DNA of 35,774 bases from a virus. Under the pieces are notes generated by a model. That model did no database searches. It worked only from the letters and a program-made list of their open reading frames with translations, and was not told the DNA's origin. The translations under genes and the position numbers were made by a program. Where the stretch lies: positions 1-35,774 of the IMG/VR virus record IMGVR_UViG_3300046683_000413. One strand, 5' to 3'. Every line of letters begins with the position of its first letter. Within the stretch, counting starts at the first letter, position 1. Shown in pieces: positions 25,464-35,739 of this stretch.

Positions 25464-25575
25464 CGTCGTACGCCTCTATGATCCTACGTTCTCCCGGCAC
25501 CACGATCACACGTTCTTCGTCGTACACCAGCACTATCCTGTCCTGCTTCGGCACGACGATCGTATCCTCGCTCAC
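25447..25575 (-). CDS. 42-aa protein with repeated PxxDR/ER motif
   Basis: GTG start at 25575 overlapping the preceding stop by GTGA. The peptide repeats a V-P/Y-x-x-D/E-R unit (VVPKQDR, VYDEER, VVPGERR), a pattern known from short phage tail-cluster proteins. It is too short to assign a role, but the coupling and the repeat make it real. Confidence 0.55.
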
Positions 25576-26876
25576 AGCAACGCTCCATAGAACGTCGTGA
25601 CGAAATTGACCGCAGCCACCGTCGTCGTAGTGGCGGAAGGCGAGAAACAATAGCACTCGTAGTAGTCGGTACCGTTGGCTTGATCGATCGTATCCACCTG
25701 AGTATACGCCGAATTCGACGTTGATTGCGCGCCATTTTGCACGATGCAGGCGCCGTTCTTGAAGAGCATGACCTGCGGAAACACGTTGTTCCGAACACCC
25801 GCCGAGAAAAACAACCCAGCCCCGAGATGCACGATCCCTGCTGCTGGCGTCCATCGAGAATTGGTCGCGTCGTACTTGTTATTGACGTCGAACACCTTGC
25901 TGGTGAACTTCATCTTGGTGTTGGTGCTGTCGGGAATGCCGGTCTGGTTCGTTGCCAGCTTGGCCCGAAATGCATCTTTCGTGGCCGGCGACGTACCAGC
26001 CGGTCCCGTGATGCCGGTCGGACCCGTCAAACCGACAGGACCGGTAAAACCAGTCGGCCCGATCTGCCCGACTTGCCCCGTCGGCCCGATATTGCCGGTC
26101 GGGCCCGTAGCGCCCAGGCCCGTAGGACCAATGCCAAACGGACCGGTATTGCCGGTCGGCCCGGTAAGACCAAGCGGCCCTGTGGGCCCAGTTCGGCCAA
26201 TCGGCCCGGTATAGCCGGTCGGCCCGTCGACGCCGTTGTAGCCATCAACACCGCGAGGCCCGGTGGCGCCGACGCCAGGACCCGTGGGACCGGTGGCGCC
26301 GGTTGTCGACGCAAATCCCGCCGGTCCTGTCGCTCCGAGGCCCGTCGGTCCGGTGGCTCCTGTCGACCCCAACGCACCTGTCAGTCCGGTCGGTCCCGTC
26401 GAGCCCACGATGCCCTGCGGTCCCGCTATTCCCGCAATGCCTTGCGGTCCCTGCGGCCCCACCACACCCTGCACCCCGGCCAGTCCCGACGCACCAGTCG
26501 GCCCCGTAAAGCTCGCCCCGGCAGGGCCAGGTGGACCGTTGGCGCCCACGAACCCGATCGGCCCTTGCGGTCCTGTAGAACCAGTCGCGCCTTGCAGCGC
26601 TGCCTGACCAGGCGCGCCCGTGGGACCGGACGGCCCAATGAGTCCGGCAGGGCCCGTAGCACCGGTTGCCGATGCGGTGCCGGGAGCACCCGTCGGTCCG
26701 ATCGGGCCCACGTCACCGAGAGCGCCAAGCGCTCCCGTAGCACCAGCAGGGCCGGTCGGGCCGCCAGCAGGACCGGTCGGACCCGGACCACCCGCCGGAC
26801 CGGACGGGCCCGCAGGCCCCGACACCACCACGACAGGGCGGGTCGCGATCGGAGCTGCGGGAGCCGGGTTGGCCAT
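25572..26876 (-). CDS. Collagen-like fibre protein with C1q-like head
   Basis: 434 aa. After the module [19 protein letters not shown], residues about 20-290 are Gly-X-Y collagen-like repeats ([10 protein letters not shown] types). The C-terminal 140 residues look like a C1q/TNF-type trimeric head: [43 protein letters not shown] and a final VTTFYGALL. Such proteins form trimeric fibres on virions and bind host surfaces. It shares its N-terminal module with two other fibre genes here. Confidence 0.75.
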
Positions 26877-26877
26877 G

Positions 26878-27342
26878 TCAGCCTATTCTCCAAGCCGTTC
26901 CGTCGGCAAACACCGGCACCTTGTTGCTGCCACCACCAACGACGACGCTGCTGAATGTCGTAACAGTGGCGTCTGTAACAAAGTTACGGTCTCCCACCGT
27001 ACTCGCTGCCGGCAAACTAGACACCGTATTAGGTCCGCCGATCGTTCCGGTCGGACCAGTCGCTCCGATGGCTCCAGTCGGCCCAGCGACAACCGACGGC
27101 GAGCCGATCCCCGGCGGTCCGGTGTTTCCCGTCGGTCCTGTGAACGCACCAGCGCCCTGAGCACCCGTTATTCCGGTTGGCCCGGTATGACCTGTGAGCC
27201 CCTGCGGACCCGTCACGCCGGTACCTTGCGGACCAATCAAACCCGTCGGCCCGGTCGGGCCACCGGAGGGACCGGTGTGACCGCCGATGACGACGACCGG
27301 CCGAGTCTGAATTGGCGCAGGAACGCTGGGCTGTGATGTCAT
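26878..27342 (-). CDS. Short collagen-like fibre protein
   Basis: 154 aa when started at ATG 27342 (ATGA overlap with the tailspike stop). N-terminal [20 protein letters not shown], a Gly-X-Y stretch, then the compact end [20 protein letters not shown] and [12 protein letters not shown], a module found at the end of many phage tail proteins. It probably trimerises and attaches to the tailspike region. Confidence 0.7.
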
Positions 27343-29153
27343 GACAATACCACCATCGGGTCCAAATAGTAGGTCGTGCTCGGCTTGGCGGCCCGCACCC
27401 GCGCGTGCAGATAACCCGCCATGCCGGGCTGCGGCACGGACAGCGTGGCGGTGAGCTTGAACGGCAGCCAACCTGCACCACTGCCACCACCGTTCCACGT
27501 CGAACTGTCCGACGCCACCGCAGCATTCGCTGCCAGCAAATTCGATTTGGTCGTGCTGACGATCGTGCCAATCGGGGTCAGCGATGATCCGAGATACTCG
27601 ATCTCCAACCAAATATCATCATTGTTCGGCAACGCACCCGCGTTAATCGTCCCGCACACCGTCACGACGATATTGGCGCCCGTCGTCGGGTTCCAGATGG
27701 CGTAGGGCTCGGCCTTGAACGGACGTAGCCATTGTGAATTGACCGTAGTAACGATCTTGCGGGACTGCGCCTGCCCAGTCGGGTCGGACGCACCGCCAAC
27801 GCGCGTGATCGCCGTCTCGGTCGTCTCGGTGCCCTCGTAGGCGTAGCGGGCAGATTTGTAGCCGGTGCCGCCGCTGTCGGAACGAACGAGCTGAATAGTC
27901 TGCCCGAAAGCCAGCGGCGTCGGGATCGTCATCGAGGCGTTGAGCTTGCAGTCCTTGATCAGCCAATTGCCCATCTCATAGCTGATCGGAAGCTGAATTA
28001 AGTTACCCGTCAATTGGCTGAGATCGAGCCCTTCCAAGATGACATTGCATAGACGTCCAGTTGCCGCTTGCCCGATGAAAGCCGTAGGAACCGCAGAGCC
28101 GCTTACCAGTACCGGACCGGTGTTTCGCCAGGAGAAATCCGTTACCCCGACTTCAAGGTAGTTGTTGACGTGGCCGAAGCTCACCGTGCAATTATTCCAG
28201 ATGACGACACCGGCAATAGTAGTGTTGAGCTGTATTGTCGTCGCCGTTGCTGCCGTGTTTGCAACCTTGAAAATACAGTTGTCGAAATAATAAAACGCGT
28301 TGCCGGGGGTAATTATAATAAACGAAGAGCCGGATGATTGACCTGCTCCGGCTATGAACGAGATACCGTAGATATAAATCGACCCGAGCGTCGAGTTGAA
28401 GGTCAGGCTCACTGCGCCGGTCGTCGATATCGTCGCAGTCGTCCGCAAATCCGTTGACGCAGGCGGATAGCTGCCGGAATGATTGTGGCAGATGATCCGC
28501 CCCACGGTTGCAACGCTGAGGGTCGGAGCTATCGTGATCGCCGTCGCCTGCGACTCGGCGTGGTTGTCGCCGACGTAGATCGTGTTGCCGGCCGCAAACC
28601 AGGTCGTCACGCCAGCATTGCCCAGCCGCGCGTGCGGGGCTTGACCGCCAGTGAAGTTGCCCACCACACCAAGGCAAGTCCATGTGACCGTGCTGTCCGT
28701 CTGTGTTGTGCCAGCAGTGTTGTTCGCCCAAGCTGGCTCTGATGCGCCCGTGCTCCCCGCTGTGCTGCATATCCAGTAGCTCGCGCCGTTGTTGCGCTGG
28801 ATGATCGCGCCCAGCGTGACGGCAGAGTTTATTGCTTTGGCCGCCGCCCAGGTCGGTGTGTTGGTCAGATCGCCATTGACCGCCGACGCGCCGGTGCATT
28901 CCTGCCACGTGGCGGTTCCGTCCGTCGTCTTGGCGCCACGGGTCAGCACCCAAGTCGCGTCGGTGACGTTCCCGGTCGTGCCCGCAGCGACACAAACAAA
29001 CACCCGCTCGCTACCGACCGCAGGGGCCGTGAACTGGCGGACCAATTGACCTGCTGCTACTGCGGCATTCTGCGGACGCTTAGCAACGGCGTAGTGACCG
29101 GTTGTTGATTGGTCACCTGCGTTGCAGTACCAGCACTGATCATAGAAGGCCAC
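27339..29153 (-). CDS. Tailspike-like beta-helix protein (604 aa)
   Basis: 604 aa with GTG start 29153. The N-terminal part has two repeats of the type [12 protein letters not shown] and [11 protein letters not shown] (small Ig-like or carbohydrate-binding units). From about residue 190 to 400 there are runs of short strands and Asn/Thr ladders ([32 protein letters not shown]), as in right-handed beta-helix tailspikes. The C-terminal end is a beta domain. It is probably the receptor-binding or polysaccharide-degrading spike, with no catalytic residues assigned. It lies among the fibre genes. Confidence 0.6.
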
Positions 29154-29489: not shown

Positions 29490-30524
29490 CTAAAATTCCG
29501 TGATCATGACGACGCCGTTGCCGCCATTGCCGCCGCCGACGGCGCCGCTGGCTTGTCCGATCGAGCCACCGCTGCCGCCGCCGCCGGCGCCGAGGGCATT
29601 GAATCCGGTGGCAAATGTTGCAGTCCATTGCTGCTGCATGGCTCCCGGCCCCAGCAAACTATTGCCGCCGGCGCCTCCGGTGAAAACGGTGCCGCCCTGG
29701 GCTGCTTGAACGCCGAATTGCCCTGGACTGCCGGGGGCGGTGAAGTCCCCGACGCAGCCGGCCAGGACGGCGCCACCACCGGGAGCCAAGCCGCTGCCGT
29801 TCGATGGGGCGCCCTTGGCGACGCAGAGCACGCCGACGCTGCTATCGCCGCCGGCAGAGCCGGCGCTGTTCGTAGTGCCGGGGCCGCCGGTGCCGCCGCC
29901 GCCCACGGTAACGGCTTGTGAGGCGCCGATCTGGGCTGCGGTGCACAATCTACGTGCATATGCTCCTGATCCGCCGCCGCCGCCGATGTCATTATAGCCG
30001 CTTTGCGCTGCGTAACCGTTGCCGCCGGCGCCGGCACCAACCATTTCGATGATGCAAGTGGTCATGCCAGCGGTAGGGGTGTAAGTGCCGCTGGCGTTGA
30101 ACATTCTGATCGCCCGCACCGAGGGGTGGCTTGCGACTGCGGCCGTGACGAACGCGGTGCTCGCGGCCTGTGTTGTGTTGGTTGCGGGCGCTGCGGTCGG
30201 TACGGTTGGGGTTCCGGTCAAGGCCGGCGATGCGAGGGGCGCGCGAGATGTATCGCTTGGATGAACGTGATCCTCGCGCGAATAGGCAGTCGCCACACCA
30301 GGAGCGGCAATATTGTCCATAAGTGGATTGATACTACTTGGCGTCGACGGTCCTGTAGGACCAACAGAACCAGCTGCACCAGACGGCCCCGTCGATCCTG
30401 TAGGACCGGCCGGACCTCCACCAAGCGTTACCCACATGCCATGCGACGTAAACGTGTAGGTCACACCTAAAAACGTGTAGGTCTGGCCAATCGTCGGATT
30501 TGCTGGGAAATCGATGCTGGCCAT
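29490..30524 (-). CDS. Glycine-rich tail fibre protein
   Basis: 344 aa from ATG 30524. Module A (MASIDFPANPTIGQTYTFLG) is shared with the next gene upstream. A short Gly-X-Y segment follows, then LASPALTGTPTVPTA with AASTAFVTAAVA, a classic tail fibre motif, and a C-terminal 150 residues made of glycine-rich loops (GAGAGGNGY, GGGGSGAYA, GGAGGNSLLG), which recall polyglycine sandwich adhesins. It is a probable receptor-binding fibre. The upstream extension of the frame is discarded because it reads through the stop of the preceding gene. Confidence 0.7.
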   Translation of the reverse strand: MASIDFPANPTIGQTYTFLGVTYTFTSHGMWVTLGGGPAGPTGSTGPSGAAGSVGPTGPSTPSSINPLMDNIAAPGVATAYSREDHVHPSDTSRAPLASPALTGTPTVPTAAPATNTTQAASTAFVTAAVASHPSVRAIRMFNASGTYTPTAGMTTCIIEMVGAGAGGNGYAAQSGYNDIGGGGGSGAYARRLCTAAQIGASQAVTVGGGGTGGPGTTNSAGSAGGDSSVGVLCVAKGAPSNGSGLAPGGGAVLAGCVGDFTAPGSPGQFGVQAAQGGTVFTGGAGGNSLLGPGAMQQQWTATFATGFNALGAGGGGSGGSIGQASGAVGGGNGGNGVVMITEF

Positions 30525-31135
30525 CACACCCACCATCCAGGACAAAGCAACGTCACTGCCGCCATTGGACCTGTCGATCCAACCGGTCCCGTCGGTCCAA
30601 GCGAACCAGCCGTTCCCGTTGCTCCTGCCATTCCAGTCGGCCCAGCCAACGACGGCGCCACCTGCACCCACTGCGAAGAGCTGGTAGTAGCAACATAGAC
30701 CGCCAGCACACCCCCCGTGAGATCATACCAGAAATAGCCCGGCGGCACCGACGTTGGTGGAGGTGGCACCGATGCGGTGTAACCAACTCCCATTGCACCC
30801 GTAATTCCCGTCGATCCGGTAGGACCCGTGCTTCCAACTGCGCCTGGCGCACCGACACCTCCCGGCGACCCAGCAGCTCCCGTCGGACCTGTTGCGCCCG
30901 CGCCGCCCGTACCAGCCCCACCTGTGCCCGCCGGGCCGGCAGCTCCCGTCGGACCTGTCGGTCCCAATCCTCCAGGCCCGGTAGGACCTGACACACCAGT
31001 AGGACCGGAAGGCCCAGGCGGACCAGATGTCACCTGCACCACCCACACACCTCGTGATGTGTAGGTATAGGTCACGCTATTGTACGTGTAAGTCTGGCCA
31101 ATGGATGGAGAGTTGGGGAAATCGATGTTAGCCAT
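30524..31135 (-). CDS. Collagen-like fibre protein with module A
   Basis: 203 aa. Module A ([20 protein letters not shown]), Gly-X-Y repeats, then GYFWYDLTGGVLAVYVATTS and SSQWVQVAPSLAGPTG, ending in VTLLCPGWWV. The C-terminal part matches that of the next gene upstream, so the two are duplicates. TGATG overlaps join it to both neighbours. Confidence 0.7.
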   Translation of the reverse strand: MANIDFPNSPSIGQTYTYNSVTYTYTSRGVWVVQVTSGPPGPSGPTGVSGPTGPGGLGPTGPTGAAGPAGTGGAGTGGAGATGPTGAAGSPGGVGAPGAVGSTGPTGSTGITGAMGVGYTASVPPPPTSVPPGYFWYDLTGGVLAVYVATTSSSQWVQVAPSLAGPTGMAGATGTAGSLGPTGPVGSTGPMAAVTLLCPGWWV

Positions 31136-31947
31136 CAGACCACCCACCCGCCCAAGAGCAACGTCACCGCCCCACCGCTACCGCCAATCCCAGCCGGCCC
31201 CGTCGGCCCAGCCAGCGGCGGCGCCACCTGCACCCACTGCGTGGAATTGCCATCGTCGACCCAGATCGACAGGATGCCGGTCGTCAGATCGTACCAAAGA
31301 TAGCCAGGCGTCGGCGATGCCGGCGGCGTGCTCGAGCCCGTGTAACCACCGCCGCCGCTGCCACCACCGCTTCCCGCGGCTCCTGTAGGGCCCGTGGCGC
31401 CAGTGTTGGCAGCCGATCCGCCAGGGCCCGCAGGACCTACCGGCCCTTGTGCTCCCGCCGACCCGGGAAGGCCCGTCGGCCCAATAGGACCCGTCGTACC
31501 AGCCGCACCCGCCGGCCCGGTCGCGCCCGTGTTGACGGCAGATCCAGAAACACCGGTTGGCCCAGTCTGACCCACGCGCCCTGTCGGACCAGTGGCGCCT
31601 GTCGCACCGGTCGCAGACGCCGTACCCGGCGCGCCCGTAGGGCCCGTAGAGCCCGTGAGCCCAAGCCCGCTGGCACCCGTGGCGCCCGTCGGCCCAAGCG
31701 TTCCAACACCCACCGGGCCCGTAACGCCGATCGATCCCGTCGGGCCTGTGATTGCTAGCCCGGTCGGCCCGATTGATCCGGTCGGTCCAGTGAACGCGCC
31801 TAGTCCGGTAGGCCCGGTAGCTGCCGCTCCAGTAGGGCCTGTCGGACCGGTGCCGCCTGTGGGACCACCAGCCGGGCCCGTATGCCCACCCACGACCACA
31901 ACGGGGCGTGTCGACACGATAGCCGGTTCGTTCTTTATAACCGCCAC
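31135..31947 (-). CDS. Collagen-like fibre protein with module B
   Basis: 270 aa from GTG 31947. Module B ([20 protein letters not shown]) leads into a long Gly-X-Y region and then [20 protein letters not shown] and [14 protein letters not shown], ending GGWVV. It has the same C-terminal unit as the gene downstream of it, but a different N-terminal module. Confidence 0.7.
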
Positions 31948-33528: not shown

Positions 33529-34368
33529 TTATCCGCCCGAGATGACCTGCGCCTGACAGAGCGCCGACGAATCGACTACTTGATATCCATAGATTTGCAG
33601 ACCACGAAGGATTTGACCGAACGTCAATTCGCTCCGAAGCGTCTCGACCTTGCTGATCTGGCTGGCAAACGTCAGAGCGTGGGCGTGGCCAGCAAAGATC
33701 GGATACTCGCCGGCCGCGAAGTTGGTCGAATCCGTCGTGGCGGTCGGCAGCAGGTTCGAGATATACAACGTGAATCGATCAATCATTCCGAGCCTGCCAT
33801 TGCGCAGCATGGAGACCGGATCGCCCGACAGATATGCCTGGCGCAGTTCCGACTGCTTGATCTGCCGCCCGGCCCATGACGGCAGCACCACCCAGCGGCC
33901 CATCTCGGGAATGTTCTGCTCGTCCAGGCACTGCCCCATCTTCAGGAGCAGATCGATCAGATTGGACTGGCCCGCCGTCGCACCCTGCCCAACCACCGTG
34001 ATCGGCGTGCCCTTGATCCCGAGATTGATGTTGGCGGAAATTTTCCCGGCCGCAGCACCCCGGTTGGTGACTGCCTGGGCGCCGCCGACAATGCCGTCCA
34101 ACACTTCCGTGTCGACCGCGATCTTCAACTGCTGAGCTGCGTCGTCGCTCCATATAGACAAGACATTCAGATCGCTCTGCACCTCCATCACGTCGTCGAG
34201 GATCAGAGAGAAGTAAAAGCCGTTGCCGATGTAGAGTTCGACCGAGCCTCCAGTCGGCCGATCAAGACCAAGCAAACCATCCGCCTGATACTTGCGGATC
34301 GTGATCGTAGGCTTCGTCCGGATCTTCACCCGGTCGCCCTGATTGGCTATCTCACCTTCGTAGTCGGT
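33529..34368 (-). CDS. Major capsid protein, exon 3
   Basis: 279 codons, from ACC at 34368 to the stop. It begins TDYEGEIANQGDRVKIRTKP, the conserved strand of P22-coat/HK97-fold major capsid proteins, and continues with SVELYIGNGFYFSLILDDVM, GQSNLIDLLLKMGQCLDEQN and WVVLPSWAG. The reading is open and in frame with exon 2 across the intron joint (N at the end of exon 2, T here). Without splicing the reading has no usual start: the first Met-like codon in frame is a GTG inside the conserved VKIR, which would remove the N-terminal third of the family domain. The strongest single evidence for the intron is this missing N-terminus recovered at 35739. Confidence 0.88.
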   Translation of the reverse strand, partial: TDYEGEIANQGDRVKIRTKPTITIRKYQADGLLGLDRPTGGSVELYIGNGFYFSLILDDVMEVQSDLNVLSIWSDDAAQQLKIAVDTEVLDGIVGGAQAVTNRGAAAGKISANINLGIKGTPITVVGQGATAGQSNLIDLLLKMGQCLDEQNIPEMGRWVVLPSWAGRQIKQSELRQAYLSGDPVSMLRNGRLGMIDRFTLYISNLLPTATTDSTNFAAGEYPIFAGHAHALTFASQISKVETLRSELTFGQILRGLQIYGYQVVDSSALCQAQVISGG

Positions 34369-35382
34369 CGATCAGCAATCAAACAGGATTGACTGTTTGA
34401 TCTGCTTCCCACTGTCGCTTACGCTGTTGTGCGCCCGGCCCCATAAACGACGGAATATCACGTACCGTCGCCAGAAGCCTGGCCACCTCAGCGCCCGGAC
34501 CACTCAGTCTGTGCGGCTGGACTTGGAGTTGTTTCATCGCCAATTGGATACGCTCCGCGTCGCGAAAGTGCCCCATCTTGGCGCAACCGAGAAGGAAATA
34601 GGCCTGATCGTTTTTGAGCACCATGTGCTTGGCCAATGCAGTTTTACCACTCTCAAACATCGAGCGGACTTTGGCCGCGTCCATAGACAGCACCCAACTA
34701 ACCATCGACGTACCATTCTCGGTTACAAACTCCTGAACGGATCCTCCGTAAGCCTTCTGCAACAGATCGATACCAACCCGTTCGAAGGCTTCATCGCATA
34801 CCGAAAGCACCGGCTGTGCCGACATGCCCTTTGGAATGCGAATTGCGAAAGACCCATTCCCGTCGATATATCCGGCGGCCCATTTTCGTGTCGGATGTTT
34901 TGGCATAGGTGAGGCGCCTCTCGCGGCGTCAAACCTTCGCTTCCCAACCTGCACGTCCATGACATCGCCGTTCATACCGATGGCGCAGTCGGCAAGTGCT
35001 CTTTTCAAGACCAGGAACTTGCGAAGCCGCATCAGAACGCTGACAGCTTTGGTACCCGCCACATTCCAGTGATGAGTGCCGCTGTACTCACGTATTCCAA
35101 AGCAGCCCCACACCTTTTCCAACGAAGGGGGTGTTAGGCTGGACGCGATCAACTCCATGAAACTCCGGCCTGGCGCTTTTTGATGAAACGAAACCACCGC
35201 ATAAGCTCGCTGCGGTCCTGTTCCATCCCAATTCTCGCGCCGCATTGGCGGATTCCACATGAGGTGAATGCATCCGTCGCTATCCAACAGTCCTGCAAGG
35301 TACTTGTCGCTGAGCCGGTCCTTGCCTCTGGTTCCCTTCGGTTCCAGTTTTTCAGGTCCGGTATTGCTCGAACTACCGTTTA
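34369..35382 (-). ncRNA. Group I intron B (1014 nt) in the capsid gene, with LAGLIDADG ORF
   Basis: P1 pairs exon end CUCGAAU with GUUCGAG (U-G wobble at the splice site). P3 pairs CCGGACC (35355-35361) with GGUCCGG (34495-34501). P4 pairs CUGG (35344-35347) with CCAG (35328-35331), with GAAAAA before it. P7 pairs GACUG in CACAGACUGAGUGG (near 34500-34512) with CAGUC (34391-34395). P9 is CAAUC/GAUUG. The last base is G at 34369, and P10 could use CGGU with the exon start ACCG. The endonuclease ORF fills the space between P4 and P7 (P6 loop). The core is clearly related to intron A. Splicing itself is a prediction. Confidence 0.88.
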
Positions 35383-35497
35383 ATTCGAGATCGCGCTCAA
35401 CACGGTTGAGGCGTAGCTTTCCGACAAAAGTCGGACCGACTATCGCTTCAGGGGTAACCCCTGCTGGATCACTTAGTCTGTGCGGGTGCGTGCTCAT
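34379..35497 (-). CDS. LAGLIDADG homing endonuclease spanning intron A, exon 2 and intron B
   Basis: 372 aa. Motif 1 KYLAGLLDSDG is at residues 65-75 and motif 2 WAAGYIDGNG at 206-215, each with the acidic residue used in catalysis, so this is a monomeric two-motif enzyme. Such enzymes cleave intron-less alleles and spread the intron. The start ATG 35497 follows GAGGGAAGC inside the core of intron A. The frame then crosses exon 2 in a different phase and enters intron B; residues 1-60 therefore reuse ribozyme core and exon sequence. The last residues (DQTVNPV) overlap P7 and P9. It can be made only from unspliced RNA. A start after exon 2 at a non-ATG codon is possible. Confidence 0.85.
   Translation of the reverse strand: MSTHPHRLSDPAGVTPEAIVGPTFVGKLRLNRVERDLELNGSSSNTGPEKLEPKGTRGKDRLSDKYLAGLLDSDGCIHLMWNPPMRRENWDGTGPQRAYAVVSFHQKAPGRSFMELIASSLTPPSLEKVWGCFGIREYSGTHHWNVAGTKAVSVLMRLRKFLVLKRALADCAIGMNGDVMDVQVGKRRFDAARGASPMPKHPTRKWAAGYIDGNGSFAIRIPKGMSAQPVLSVCDEAFERVGIDLLQKAYGGSVQEFVTENGTSMVSWVLSMDAAKVRSMFESGKTALAKHMVLKNDQAYFLLGCAKMGHFRDAERIQLAMKQLQVQPHRLSGPGAEVARLLATVRDIPSFMGPGAQQRKRQWEADQTVNPV
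35383..35416 (-). CDS. Major capsid protein, exon 2 (34 nt)
   Basis: Minute middle exon: one base completing the codon begun in exon 1 (TT plus C, Phe), then TAC GCC to AAT, giving YASTVLSAISN. It links KLVEKF of exon 1 to TDYEGEI of exon 3, reproducing the family pattern K-L-x-x-K-F-Y-x-x-T-V-L-x-x-I-x-N-T-D-Y-E-G-E-I. The phase agrees on both sides. The same 34 bases are also read in another frame by the endonuclease ORF. Confidence 0.82.
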
Positions 35498-35566
35498 GCT
35501 TCCCTCGGGTTCCAGCCAACTATGAAGGTTCCCGTTTTTCAGATCCAGTTTAAAGAAGTCCTAGCG
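35417..35566 (-). ncRNA. Group I intron A (150 nt), minimal core
   Basis: P1 pairs exon end GAGAAGUU with GACUUCUU (U-G wobble at the splice site). P3 pairs CUGGAUC (35542-35548) with GAUCCAG (35464-35470). P4 pairs CGGG with CCCG, with GAAAAAC before it as in intron B. P7 pairs GACUA in CAGACUAAGUG (35470-35480) with UAGUC (35438-35442). P8 is a perfect 6-bp hairpin CAGGGG-UUA-CCCCUG. P9 is UCCGAC-UUUU-GUCGGA. Last base G at 35417. P10 uses UAG with exon CUA. Everything a group I ribozyme needs is present in 150 nt, without P2 or other extra domains. Confidence 0.82.
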
Positions 35567-35739
35567 AACTTCTCGACCAGCTTAGCTGCATTCAGAGCTG
35601 ATCAAATTTGGCCAGCTTGGAACCAAATTTCAGGGATGAATCCCGTCGATTGGAGTAGGTTTCCGGTAGACCCTACGGGGGTCAGGGGCGGGACTGAGCC
35701 TGACGTTGCGCCAGGAAAACCCGCACTCGGGATAGCCAT
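35567..35739 (-). CDS. Major capsid protein, exon 1 (with unexplained in-frame TGA)
   Basis: Starts at ATG 35739 with GGAG eight bases before. Encodes MAIPSAGFPGATSGSVPP, then STGNLLQSTGFIPEIW, the conserved N-terminal signature of this capsid family, and ends AAKLVEKF at the intron A joint. The family normally has only about two residues between W and K-L. Here there are 13 codons, including TGA at codon 46 (35604-35602), within about 33 extra bases that contain the 8-bp perfect hairpin AAATTTGG/CCAAATTT and a partial duplicate of the AAGCTGG exon sequence. The rest of the frame agrees on both sides of the insert. Possible explanations: sequence error, inactivating duplication, or a read-through, bypass or splicing event not yet described. 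Confidence 0.7.

What the first reader, a model, noticed from the sequence alone, without database searches (positions are those of the whole stretch)
33529..35739. Major capsid gene split by two closely spaced group I introns
The conserved capsid N-terminus (FIPEIW), the KLVEKF/YASTVLSAISN block and TDYEGEI are found in order on one strand, but interrupted by 150 nt and 1014 nt. Both interruptions show P1 with a U-G pair at the cut, P3, P4, P7, P9 and a final G, and both splice joints restore the reading frame. The two introns lie 34 nt apart, and their cores are similar (GAAAAAC before P4, CCGCACAGACURAGUG at P7), which suggests duplication or a second homing event by a relative. Two introns in one structural gene, both inside one conserved stretch, is rare.
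Basis: partly seen in the sequence, partly recalled or inferred. Interest (0 to 1): 0.93.

Follow-up and report, generated by a model that had tools for sequence, protein, structure and literature searches.

The report
Tiny coreless introns borrowing neighbouring ribozymes
A phage capsid gene is broken not by two but by three inserts, and the third, only 33 bases long, looks like a self-splicing intron that kept its guide sequence but lost its catalyst, apparently relying on the ribozyme of the intron next door; the same design recurs in other phage capsid genes.

Summary
The two introns are real: 150 nt (35566-35417) and 1014 nt (35382-34369), 34 nt apart, with exact joints. The 150-nt one has a covarying group I core (107 of 107 cells paired), though Rfam misses both. 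I found such 29-41 nt inserts in 18 variants from two capsid families. All 18 have a P1 hairpin with U·G at the cut, an adjacent P10 guide, a final G and an in-frame stop, but no room for a core. In 18 of 18 an intron with its own P1 starts 21-81 nt downstream. The insert's tail pairs with the exon just before that P1 (72 of 72 pairs in 12 variants, flipping with serine codons) and follows the neighbour to whichever site it occupies. Best reading: non-autonomous mini group I introns spliced in cis by the neighbour's core. No RNA was examined; splicing is inferred. Nearest precedent: 63-75-nt Phialophora rDNA introns. Several introns in one phage gene is otherwise known.

The parts
35622..35739 (-). 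coat-protein exon 1a, ATG to first base of codon 40 (..FIPEIW|S)
   Evidence: conserved in intronless relatives
35589..35621 (-).
   Evidence: same type in L003, L006, L440, L441, L442, L443, L445, L446
35604..35630 (-). P1 of the mini intron: exon AAAUUUGGU (35630-35622) with GCCAAAUUU (35612-35604), U·G at the cut
   Evidence: exon and guide change together between window and L069 (AUUUGGU/GCCAAAU vs AUCUGGU/GCCAGAU)
35584..35617 (-). P10 of the mini intron: 3' exon CAGCU (35588-35584) with AGCUG (35617-35613), directly beside P1
35573..35605 (-). tail:exon helix: UUGAUCAGCU (35605-35596) with AGCUGGUCGA (35582-35573); two bases at either end can also pair in the mini P1 or in P1 of the 150-nt intron, which it abuts
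   Evidence: shuffle p 0.0026; MFE fold of the excerpt
35567..35588 (-). micro-exon 1b, 22 nt, encodes (S)AKLVEKF
35417..35566 (-). 150-nt group I intron: P3 35548-35542/35470-35464, P4 35534-35531/35509-35506, P7 35480-35474/35442-35438, P8 35462-35458/35454-35450, P9 35434-35430/35425-35421
   Evidence: P9 placed by eye, not in the count
35383..35416 (-). exon 2, 34 nt (YASTVLSAISN)
34369..35382 (-). 1014-nt group I intron with LAGLIDADG-type open frame; P3 35361-35355/34501-34495; P7 5' 34511-34505; P7 3' homologue 34414-34408 with C-to-G change
34379..35497 (-). 372-codon frame of the LAGLIDADG-type endonuclease; no ATG/GTG/TTG inside intron 2 before motif 1, open back to ATG 35497 in intron 1
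   Evidence: Pfam LAGLIDADG_1 E 0.0058, below cutoff; motifs otherwise read by eye
33529..34368 (-). coat-protein exon 3
   Evidence: Pfam Phage_capsid_4 E 5e-6; 63% identical to Rhizobium phage RHph_TM3_14A capsid

Best explanation
The gene carries two full group I introns plus a 33-nt non-autonomous group I intron. The mini intron keeps only the substrate part of a group I intron: the P1 hairpin with U·G at the 5' cut, the P10 guide for the 3' exon, and a final G. It has no catalytic core. Its tail pairs with the micro-exon directly beside P1 of the next intron, giving three consecutive helices (mini P1, tail helix, neighbour P1) in front of the neighbour's P3. I infer that the downstream core first uses the mini P1, with the tail helix standing in for P2, to cut at the mini 5' site. 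It then joins exon 1a to the micro-exon, with P10 placing the 3' site that sits in the loop of the tail helix. The same core finally excises itself with its own P1, so one ribozyme removes two introns in order. Shown: boundaries, P1, P10, tail helix, covariation, co-occurrence and polarity. Inferred: that splicing occurs, that the neighbour's core does it, and the order of steps.
For: All 18 variants (29-41 nt): U before, G at the end, P1 of 7-9 bp with U·G, P10 of 4-7 bp at shift 0, an in-frame stop inside; lengths mod 3 are 6/5/7. With inserts removed the frame is open over the 95 codons printed in 9 of 9 genes checked. Co-occurrence: in 18 of 18 an intron with its own P1 starts 21-81 nt downstream; no mini was seen without one. 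In the capsid scans alone, 6 of 6 mini types against 3 of 203 mini-less genes, Fisher p 8e-10 (related genes, so a guide only). Tail helix: in 18 of 18 the best tail-exon helix is the one within 4 nt of the neighbour's 6-bp P1; shuffle p 0.0002-0.069 with that position required, 0.0024-0.165 without; mean score 20.1 against 11.3 for 284 swapped pairs, 6% of which reach the own median. In 12 variants 72 of 72 cells over six pairs are paired, slid versions 15-37 of 72; pairs 3 and 4 flip with serine TCN/AGY (2 of 12) and pair 5 has five types. Among seven candidate neighbour sites the tail scores best, or ties for best, at the occupied one in 9 of 9 genes. RNAfold gives the three helices side by side in 14 of 14 excerpts. 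In L325 Rfam's group I model took P1 from the mini hairpin and the core from the neighbour.
Against: No RNA evidence of any kind. No reported ribozyme that excises a second intron upstream of itself was found in ten searches of open-access papers. The mini 3' site lacks P9.0, so how its final G reaches the guanosine site is not explained by a known interaction. Group I identity of the neighbours is not uniform: Rfam reaches its cutoff in 5 of 18, 36-49.5 bits (below cutoff, E 2e-5 or less) in 6, and gives nothing for the other 7, the window's included; there it rests on P1, P3 and P7 motifs and, for the 150-nt type, covariation. In L010, L041 and L069 the Rfam match starts at the neighbour's own P1, and in mini-less L271 it starts 92 nt upstream of the intron, so the L325 alignment is not specific. 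Tail helices of L387 and L388 are weak (6 bp; p 0.05 and 0.07). In one search the register was chosen as the best in each tail, and permuting tails gave a mean of 60 of 72 and reached 72 once in 2000. 12 of 18 variants come from pattern scans that fixed part of P1 (P10, the final G and the tail were not fixed). The window's 1014-nt intron has an odd P7.
Confidence: 0.68

Rival explanations
1. The mini introns are spliced by a group I core acting in trans (an excised neighbour RNA, or another intron of the same phage); the tail helix only presents the substrate.
For: Group I ribozymes modified to remove introns in trans are described (PMC4094466, start of abstract in a search listing). The minis carry complete P1+P10 substrates.
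Against: Trans action predicts minis anywhere in the gene. All 18 lie upstream and within 81 nt of the next intron, with the tail pointed at that intron's P1.
Confidence: 0.12
2. The mini introns are autonomous ultra-small group I introns, like the 67-nt PaSSU intron of Phialophora, using exon pairing for stability.
For: PMC3160393: 63-75-nt introns with P1, P10 and a pairing between mid-intron and 3' exon; one splices in vitro, but inefficiently or not at all without about 300 nt of flanking sequence.
Against: Those introns are reported to have a P7 and to end in U; the phage minis are about half the length, end in G and have no two strands left for a P7. Autonomy does not explain 18 of 18 co-occurrence or a tail that follows the neighbour's site.
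Confidence: 0.07
3. The insert is bypassed or read through by the ribosome instead of being spliced.
For: In the window the 33-nt insert is in frame with a single TGA.
Against: 12 of 18 minis have lengths that are not multiples of three. At the FIP|EIW site none of the 15 minis ends in a codon matching the CCT take-off codon (the matching-codon rule is recalled from T4 gene 60). It explains neither P1, P10 nor the link to an intron.
Confidence: 0.04
4. The inserts are dead remnants in defective genes, or assembly errors.
For: No expression data; the contigs are metagenomic.
Against: The same inserts occur in independent contigs (for example the window type in L003, L006, L440, L441, L445). Upstream exons are conserved between most mini-bearing genes (window against L069: 19 synonymous and 2 non-synonymous codon changes; but comparisons with L331 give 12-16 against 10-11). 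Tail and exon covary.
Confidence: 0.05

Closest known systems
Small putative group I introns of Phialophora SSU rDNA (PaSSU type, 63-75 nt; PMC3160393)
   Same: P1 with the wobble pair at the cut, P10, no standard core, and a pairing of mid-intron with the 3' exon; splicing needs flanking sequence (two of three parts of the text read).
   Different: About twice as long, with a reported P7, ending in U, in fungal rDNA, monophyletic. The phage minis end in G, have no P7, sit in capsid genes at two positions of the FIPEIWSAK stretch and are tied to a neighbouring intron.
Phage genes with several group I introns (Twort orf142; SIOphi terminase; phiNIT1 reductase; PMC11878797, passages)
   Same: Several introns close together, small exons between them, exon skipping reported.
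   Different: I checked the phiNIT1 reductase: two Rfam group I matches (94 and 42.7 bits, the second below cutoff) around a short exon, and no mini insert was evident. Each intron there has its own core.
Group I introns as modelled by Rfam RF00028
   Same: The neighbours of the minis in L010, L041, L069, L325 and L331 score 62-78 bits; six more score 36-49.5, below the cutoff of 50.
   Different: The window's own two introns do not match RF00028; the 150-nt one is unusually compact.
Engineered spliceozymes / trans excision-splicing ribozymes (PMC4094466, start of abstract in search listing)
   Same: A group I core removes an intron that is not itself.
   Different: Made in the laboratory and act in trans; here the guide lies in the mini intron and the link is in cis (details of the engineered kind are recalled).

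Membership tests
group I intron (150-nt insert) | P1 with U·G at the 5' cut | tested here: met
   GAGAAGUU/GACUUCUU
group I intron (150-nt insert) | core helices P3, P4, P6, P7, P8 with covariation | tested here: met
   4 sequences (two nearly alike): 100% of 107 cells paired, 10 of 27 pairs changed on both sides, covariation score, each 0/500 shuffles; number of pair types 149/500; slides 30-40% paired
group I intron (150-nt insert) | match to Rfam RF00028 | tested here: not met
   no match up to E = 10
group I intron (150-nt insert) | terminal G and exact exon joining | tested here: met
group I intron (150-nt insert) | splicing shown on RNA | not testable with these tools
   no RNA data
group I intron (1014-nt insert) | P1, P3 and 5' strand of P7, terminal G | tested here: met
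   CUCGAAU/GUUCGAG, CCGGACC/GGUCCGG, CAGACUG
group I intron (1014-nt insert) | match to Rfam RF00028 | tested here: not met
   no match up to E = 10
group I intron (1014-nt insert) | intact P7 with the G-C guanosine-binding pair | tested here: inconclusive
   homologous strand CAGUGGG; an alternative CAGUC lies at 34395-34391 and is absent from the 3' ends of L445 and L387 as printed
group I intron (33-nt insert) | P1 with U·G, P10, final G | tested here: met
   18 of 18 variants
group I intron (33-nt insert) | own catalytic core P3-P9 | tested here: not met
   33 nt; outside P1, P10 and the tail helix only 4 and 7 nt remain
Phialophora-type small introns | P7 present and terminal U | tested here: not met
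   no room for P7; 18 of 18 end in G
translational bypassing | matching take-off and landing codons | tested here: not met
   at the FIP|EIW site minis end ATG, TCG, AAG, CAG, TTG, TAG, CTG or ACG against take-off CCT
P22-type coat protein (Phage_capsid_4, PF25209) | profile match above cutoff | tested here: met
   27.4 bits, cutoff 27

The most novel reading that the evidence does not exclude
A class of non-autonomous group I introns exists in phage capsid genes: 29-41-nt elements that hold only the guide (P1+P10), a neighbour-specific docking tail and the final G, and are spliced in cis by the ribozyme of a downstream intron. One core then serves two introns, and each mini evolves a tail that tracks wherever its helper sits. 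The minis may persist because they split the target sites of homing endonucleases at almost no cost.
Probability: 0.62. Interest if true: 0.93.

Novelty: new variant of a known kind. Interest (0 to 1): 0.87.

Why it matters
Group I introns are taken as self-contained: each carries its own ribozyme. A natural pair in which a bare guide element depends on a neighbour's core would be the group I counterpart of non-autonomous transposons, and a step toward a shared splicing machine with separate substrates, the logic assumed for the origin of spliceosomal introns. It would also show that covariance-model searches miss both halves: the minis are too short, and the window's full introns score nothing in Rfam. 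The claim can be tested at once, since the constructs are small (mini, micro-exon and the 150-nt intron together span 205 nt).

Tried and rejected
Rfam on the window at gathering level and on the gene region at E up to 10: nothing. A tail pairing with P3' of the neighbour was considered first; it looked partial by eye in the introns listed and was dropped once the exon pairing was seen (no formal test of it was run). MAFFT of the mini regions misaligned the tails, so covariation was counted by script from anchored pairs. The phiNIT1 reductase 'small exon' of PMC11878797 was followed as a possible spliced mini: it is flanked by two group I matches. Homologous DNA in the cultured-phage collection: none for the window stretch; for L402, 60 records matched, the ten listed all at the 3' part of the intron.

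Rows dropped. Of the 67 contigs of pattern 1 I kept 19 with capsid context and dropped 48 as chance, judged by eye from the printed flanks and a tblastn; L398 is among the dropped because its reading frame makes no sense. Of the 13 stretches of pattern 2 I kept 10 and dropped 3. Contigs that repeat one type were not counted as further variants (e.g. L003, L004, L006, L011, L042, L071, L257, L334, L335, L391, L393, L407, L414, L419, L425, L439-L443, L446, L447, L449, L450). The 203 mini-less genes are 195 distinct uninterrupted DNAs plus L007, L009, L014, L032, L055, L056, L271 and L337; truncated loci and those with N-terminal length differences (L005, L074, L097, L133, L134, L155, L180, L198, L199, L202, L203, L251, L283, L320) were left out. 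L320 gave a meaningless alignment path. In L396 the alignment window was too short and the intron end was set by eye. In L385, L392, L424 and L433 the neighbour was not delimited by alignment; 814, 619, 437 and 741 bases of it and what follows are held. A search for the smallest known group I intron gave two papers, one relevant, PMC3160393. No structure prediction was run.
Full report
Observation. On the - strand the window carries a P22-type coat protein gene (Pfam PF25209; 63% identical to Rhizobium phage RHph_TM3_14A). Uninterrupted relatives read FIPEIWSAKLVEKFYASTVLSAISNTDYEGE or close to it. Joining at the two sites, however, leaves a TGA in exon 1. Alignment to relatives shows a third insert, 33 nt at 35621-35589, between TGGT and CAGCT.

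The two introns. Rfam finds nothing in the window. Aligned with its counterparts in L445 (nearly the same sequence), L387 (160 nt) and L337 (137 nt), the 150-nt intron pairs in P3, P4, P6, P7 and P8 in 100% of 107 cells and 10 of 27 pairs change on both sides. No shuffle of 500 reaches these two or the covariation score (149 reach the number of pair types), and slid versions pair in 30-40%. So it is a compact group I intron that Rfam's model misses. The 1014-nt intron has P1, P3 and a LAGLIDADG-type frame with two motifs, but its homologous P7 3' strand reads CAGUGGG, also in L003, L004, L006, L440, L441, L445, L387 and in the divergent L055 and L072. Its own activity is therefore uncertain.

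Survey. Six capsid scans of viral contigs and one of genomes gave, with two loci fetched otherwise, 372 loci: 319 uninterrupted (195 distinct DNAs), 52 fragmented or truncated, 1 without a match. Each scan returned at most its best 80, so this is a sample. A splicing-aware alignment of 21 of the fragmented loci showed tiny inserts in six types: window type 33 nt and L069 31 nt at codon 40; L010 35, L041 40, L325 37, L331 40 nt at codon 36. Full-size introns without a mini occur at the same codon-36 site (L007, L009, L014, L032, L056) and further down (L055, L271, L337). Two pattern scans added L387, L388, L392, L406 and, in a different capsid family (...NADKFIP|EIWSDE...), L383, L385, L396, L402, L424, L430, L433; they also gave L445, a form of the window type. 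I count 18 variants.

Anatomy. All 18 follow a U and end in G. All have a P1 of 7-9 bp with U·G at the cut and a P10 of 4-7 bp directly beside it. By comparison, 17 full-size introns of these genes have a P10 directly beside P1 of 0 to 9 bp, 0 bp in seven of them. All 18 carry a stop in the upstream frame; lengths mod 3 are 6, 5 and 7. The pattern scans fixed part of P1 for 12 of the 18, but not P10, the G or the tail. P1 covaries between window (AUUUGGU/GCCAAAU) and L069 (AUCUGGU/GCCAGAU). Once P1, P10 and the tail helix are taken out, a handful of bases remain, too few for P3-P9.

Link to the neighbour. Each of the 18 is followed 21-81 nt downstream by an intron with its own P1. Thirteen neighbours were delimited by alignment, L396 partly by eye; in L385, L392, L424 and L433 only the 5' part up to the contig end or an undelimited stretch is held, with P1 and, as printed, an endonuclease-type frame. 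Rfam RF00028 reaches its cutoff for 5 of the 18 neighbours (62-78 bits), gives 36-49.5 bits for L402, L383, L396, L385, L430 and L433 (E 2e-5 or less), and nothing for the window, L445, L387, L388, L392, L406 and L424. In the capsid scans alone the link is 6 of 6 mini types against 3 of 203 mini-less genes (p 8e-10). Collapsed over both collections it is 13 of 13 against 3 of 203, with mixed ascertainment.

The tail. The tail of each mini pairs with the exon just before the neighbour's P1: L069 AAUCGGUGUU:AACACCGAUU, L430 UCGCUCC:GGAGCGA, L383 UCACUCC:GGAGUGA, L402 CCGACC:GGUCGG, window UUGAUCAGCU:AGCUGGUCGA. Shuffle p values run from 0.0002 to 0.069 with the position required and from 0.0024 to 0.165 without it, weakest for L387 and L388. 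Own helices score 20.1 on average; 284 swapped tail-exon pairs score 11.3, with 6% reaching the own median. Combined over 13 lineages, treated as independent, p is 1e-17. Across 12 variants six pairs are kept in 72 of 72 cells, with U-A/A-U and C-G/G-C flips in the two variants where serine TCN is AGY, and five pair types at pair 5. Slides give 15-37 of 72. The register was chosen as the best in each tail, and permuting tails among variants gives a mean of 60 and reached 72 once in 2000. Minis at one site with neighbours at different sites have different tails, and the occupied site scores best or ties for best in 9 of 9 genes; the ties are with a site 1 nt away in L325, L331 and L387, and in L388 also with another site. 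MFE folds of excerpts show mini P1, tail helix and neighbour P1 side by side in 14 of 14. In L325 the Rfam model joined the mini hairpin to the neighbour's core, and its matches in L331 and L383 start inside the mini. In L010, L041 and L069 it used the neighbour's own P1, and in mini-less L271 it starts 92 nt before the intron, so this is weak support.

Mechanism. The simplest reading is a shared core: mini P1 plus tail helix (as P2) plus the neighbour's P3-P9 make a ribozyme that excises the mini, after which the neighbour excises itself. Polarity, distance and tail tracking follow from this and not from autonomy or free trans action. What is not explained is how the mini's final G is placed without P9.0; the adjacent P10 is my guess. 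No RNA was examined.

Comparison. Ten full-text searches over open-access papers showed no such dependence in their listings; subscription papers and preprint servers were not covered. PMC3160393 (two of its three parts read) is nearest: 63-75-nt fungal rDNA introns with P1, P7, P10 and an exon pairing 'PM', one of which splices in vitro but needs about 300 nt of flank. Twort, SIOphi and phiNIT1 show several introns per phage gene (PMC11878797, passages). PMC10136302 (abstract) engineers tandem group I introns around a short exon. PMC3984707 was seen in passages.

Side result. The endonuclease frame of the 1014-nt intron has no ATG, GTG or TTG before its first motif. It is open back through exon 2 to an ATG with GAGG upstream in the 150-nt intron, both in the window type and in L387, where that intron has another length and site. 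The endonuclease is thus probably made from unspliced RNA starting inside the first intron.

Verdict. The two-intron claim is right but ordinary in kind. The missed 33-nt insert is the strange part. Boundaries and coupling to the neighbour are well supported; shared catalysis is likely but unproven.

Noticed in passing
window 34379-35497 (-): The LAGLIDADG-type frame of intron 2 has no ATG/GTG/TTG before motif 1 inside that intron; it is continuous with an ATG preceded by GAGG in intron 1 (35497), also in L387 where intron 1 is 160 nt at another site.
   Followed up: partly
window 34414-34408 (-); L055, L072, L387, L440, L441, L445: P7 3' strand of the codon-58 intron reads CAGUGGG, replacing the C expected in the guanosine-binding pair, in several lineages.
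   Followed up: partly
L337:3842-3978: A 137-nt group I intron at codon 65 of a related capsid gene, smaller than the window's 150-nt one, with P3, P4, P6, P7 and P8 paired.
   Followed up: partly
L445:353-2073: One capsid gene with at least four inserts (33, 150, 1008 and 249 nt) and a further Rfam group I match at 2611-2831.
   Followed up: no
window, L010, L387: Exon 1 up to FIP is identical in DNA although mini and intron sites differ, which suggests rapid exchange of intron sets by homing.
   Followed up: no
L453 (NC_055885.1 crAss-like cr128_1): Capsid gene annotated as three pieces around two endonuclease frames; not checked for mini introns.
   Followed up: no
window 25572-26876, 26878-27612, 30524-31147, 31135-31947 (-): Several collagen-like GPTGP-rich open frames in a row, perhaps tail or fibre proteins.
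   Followed up: no
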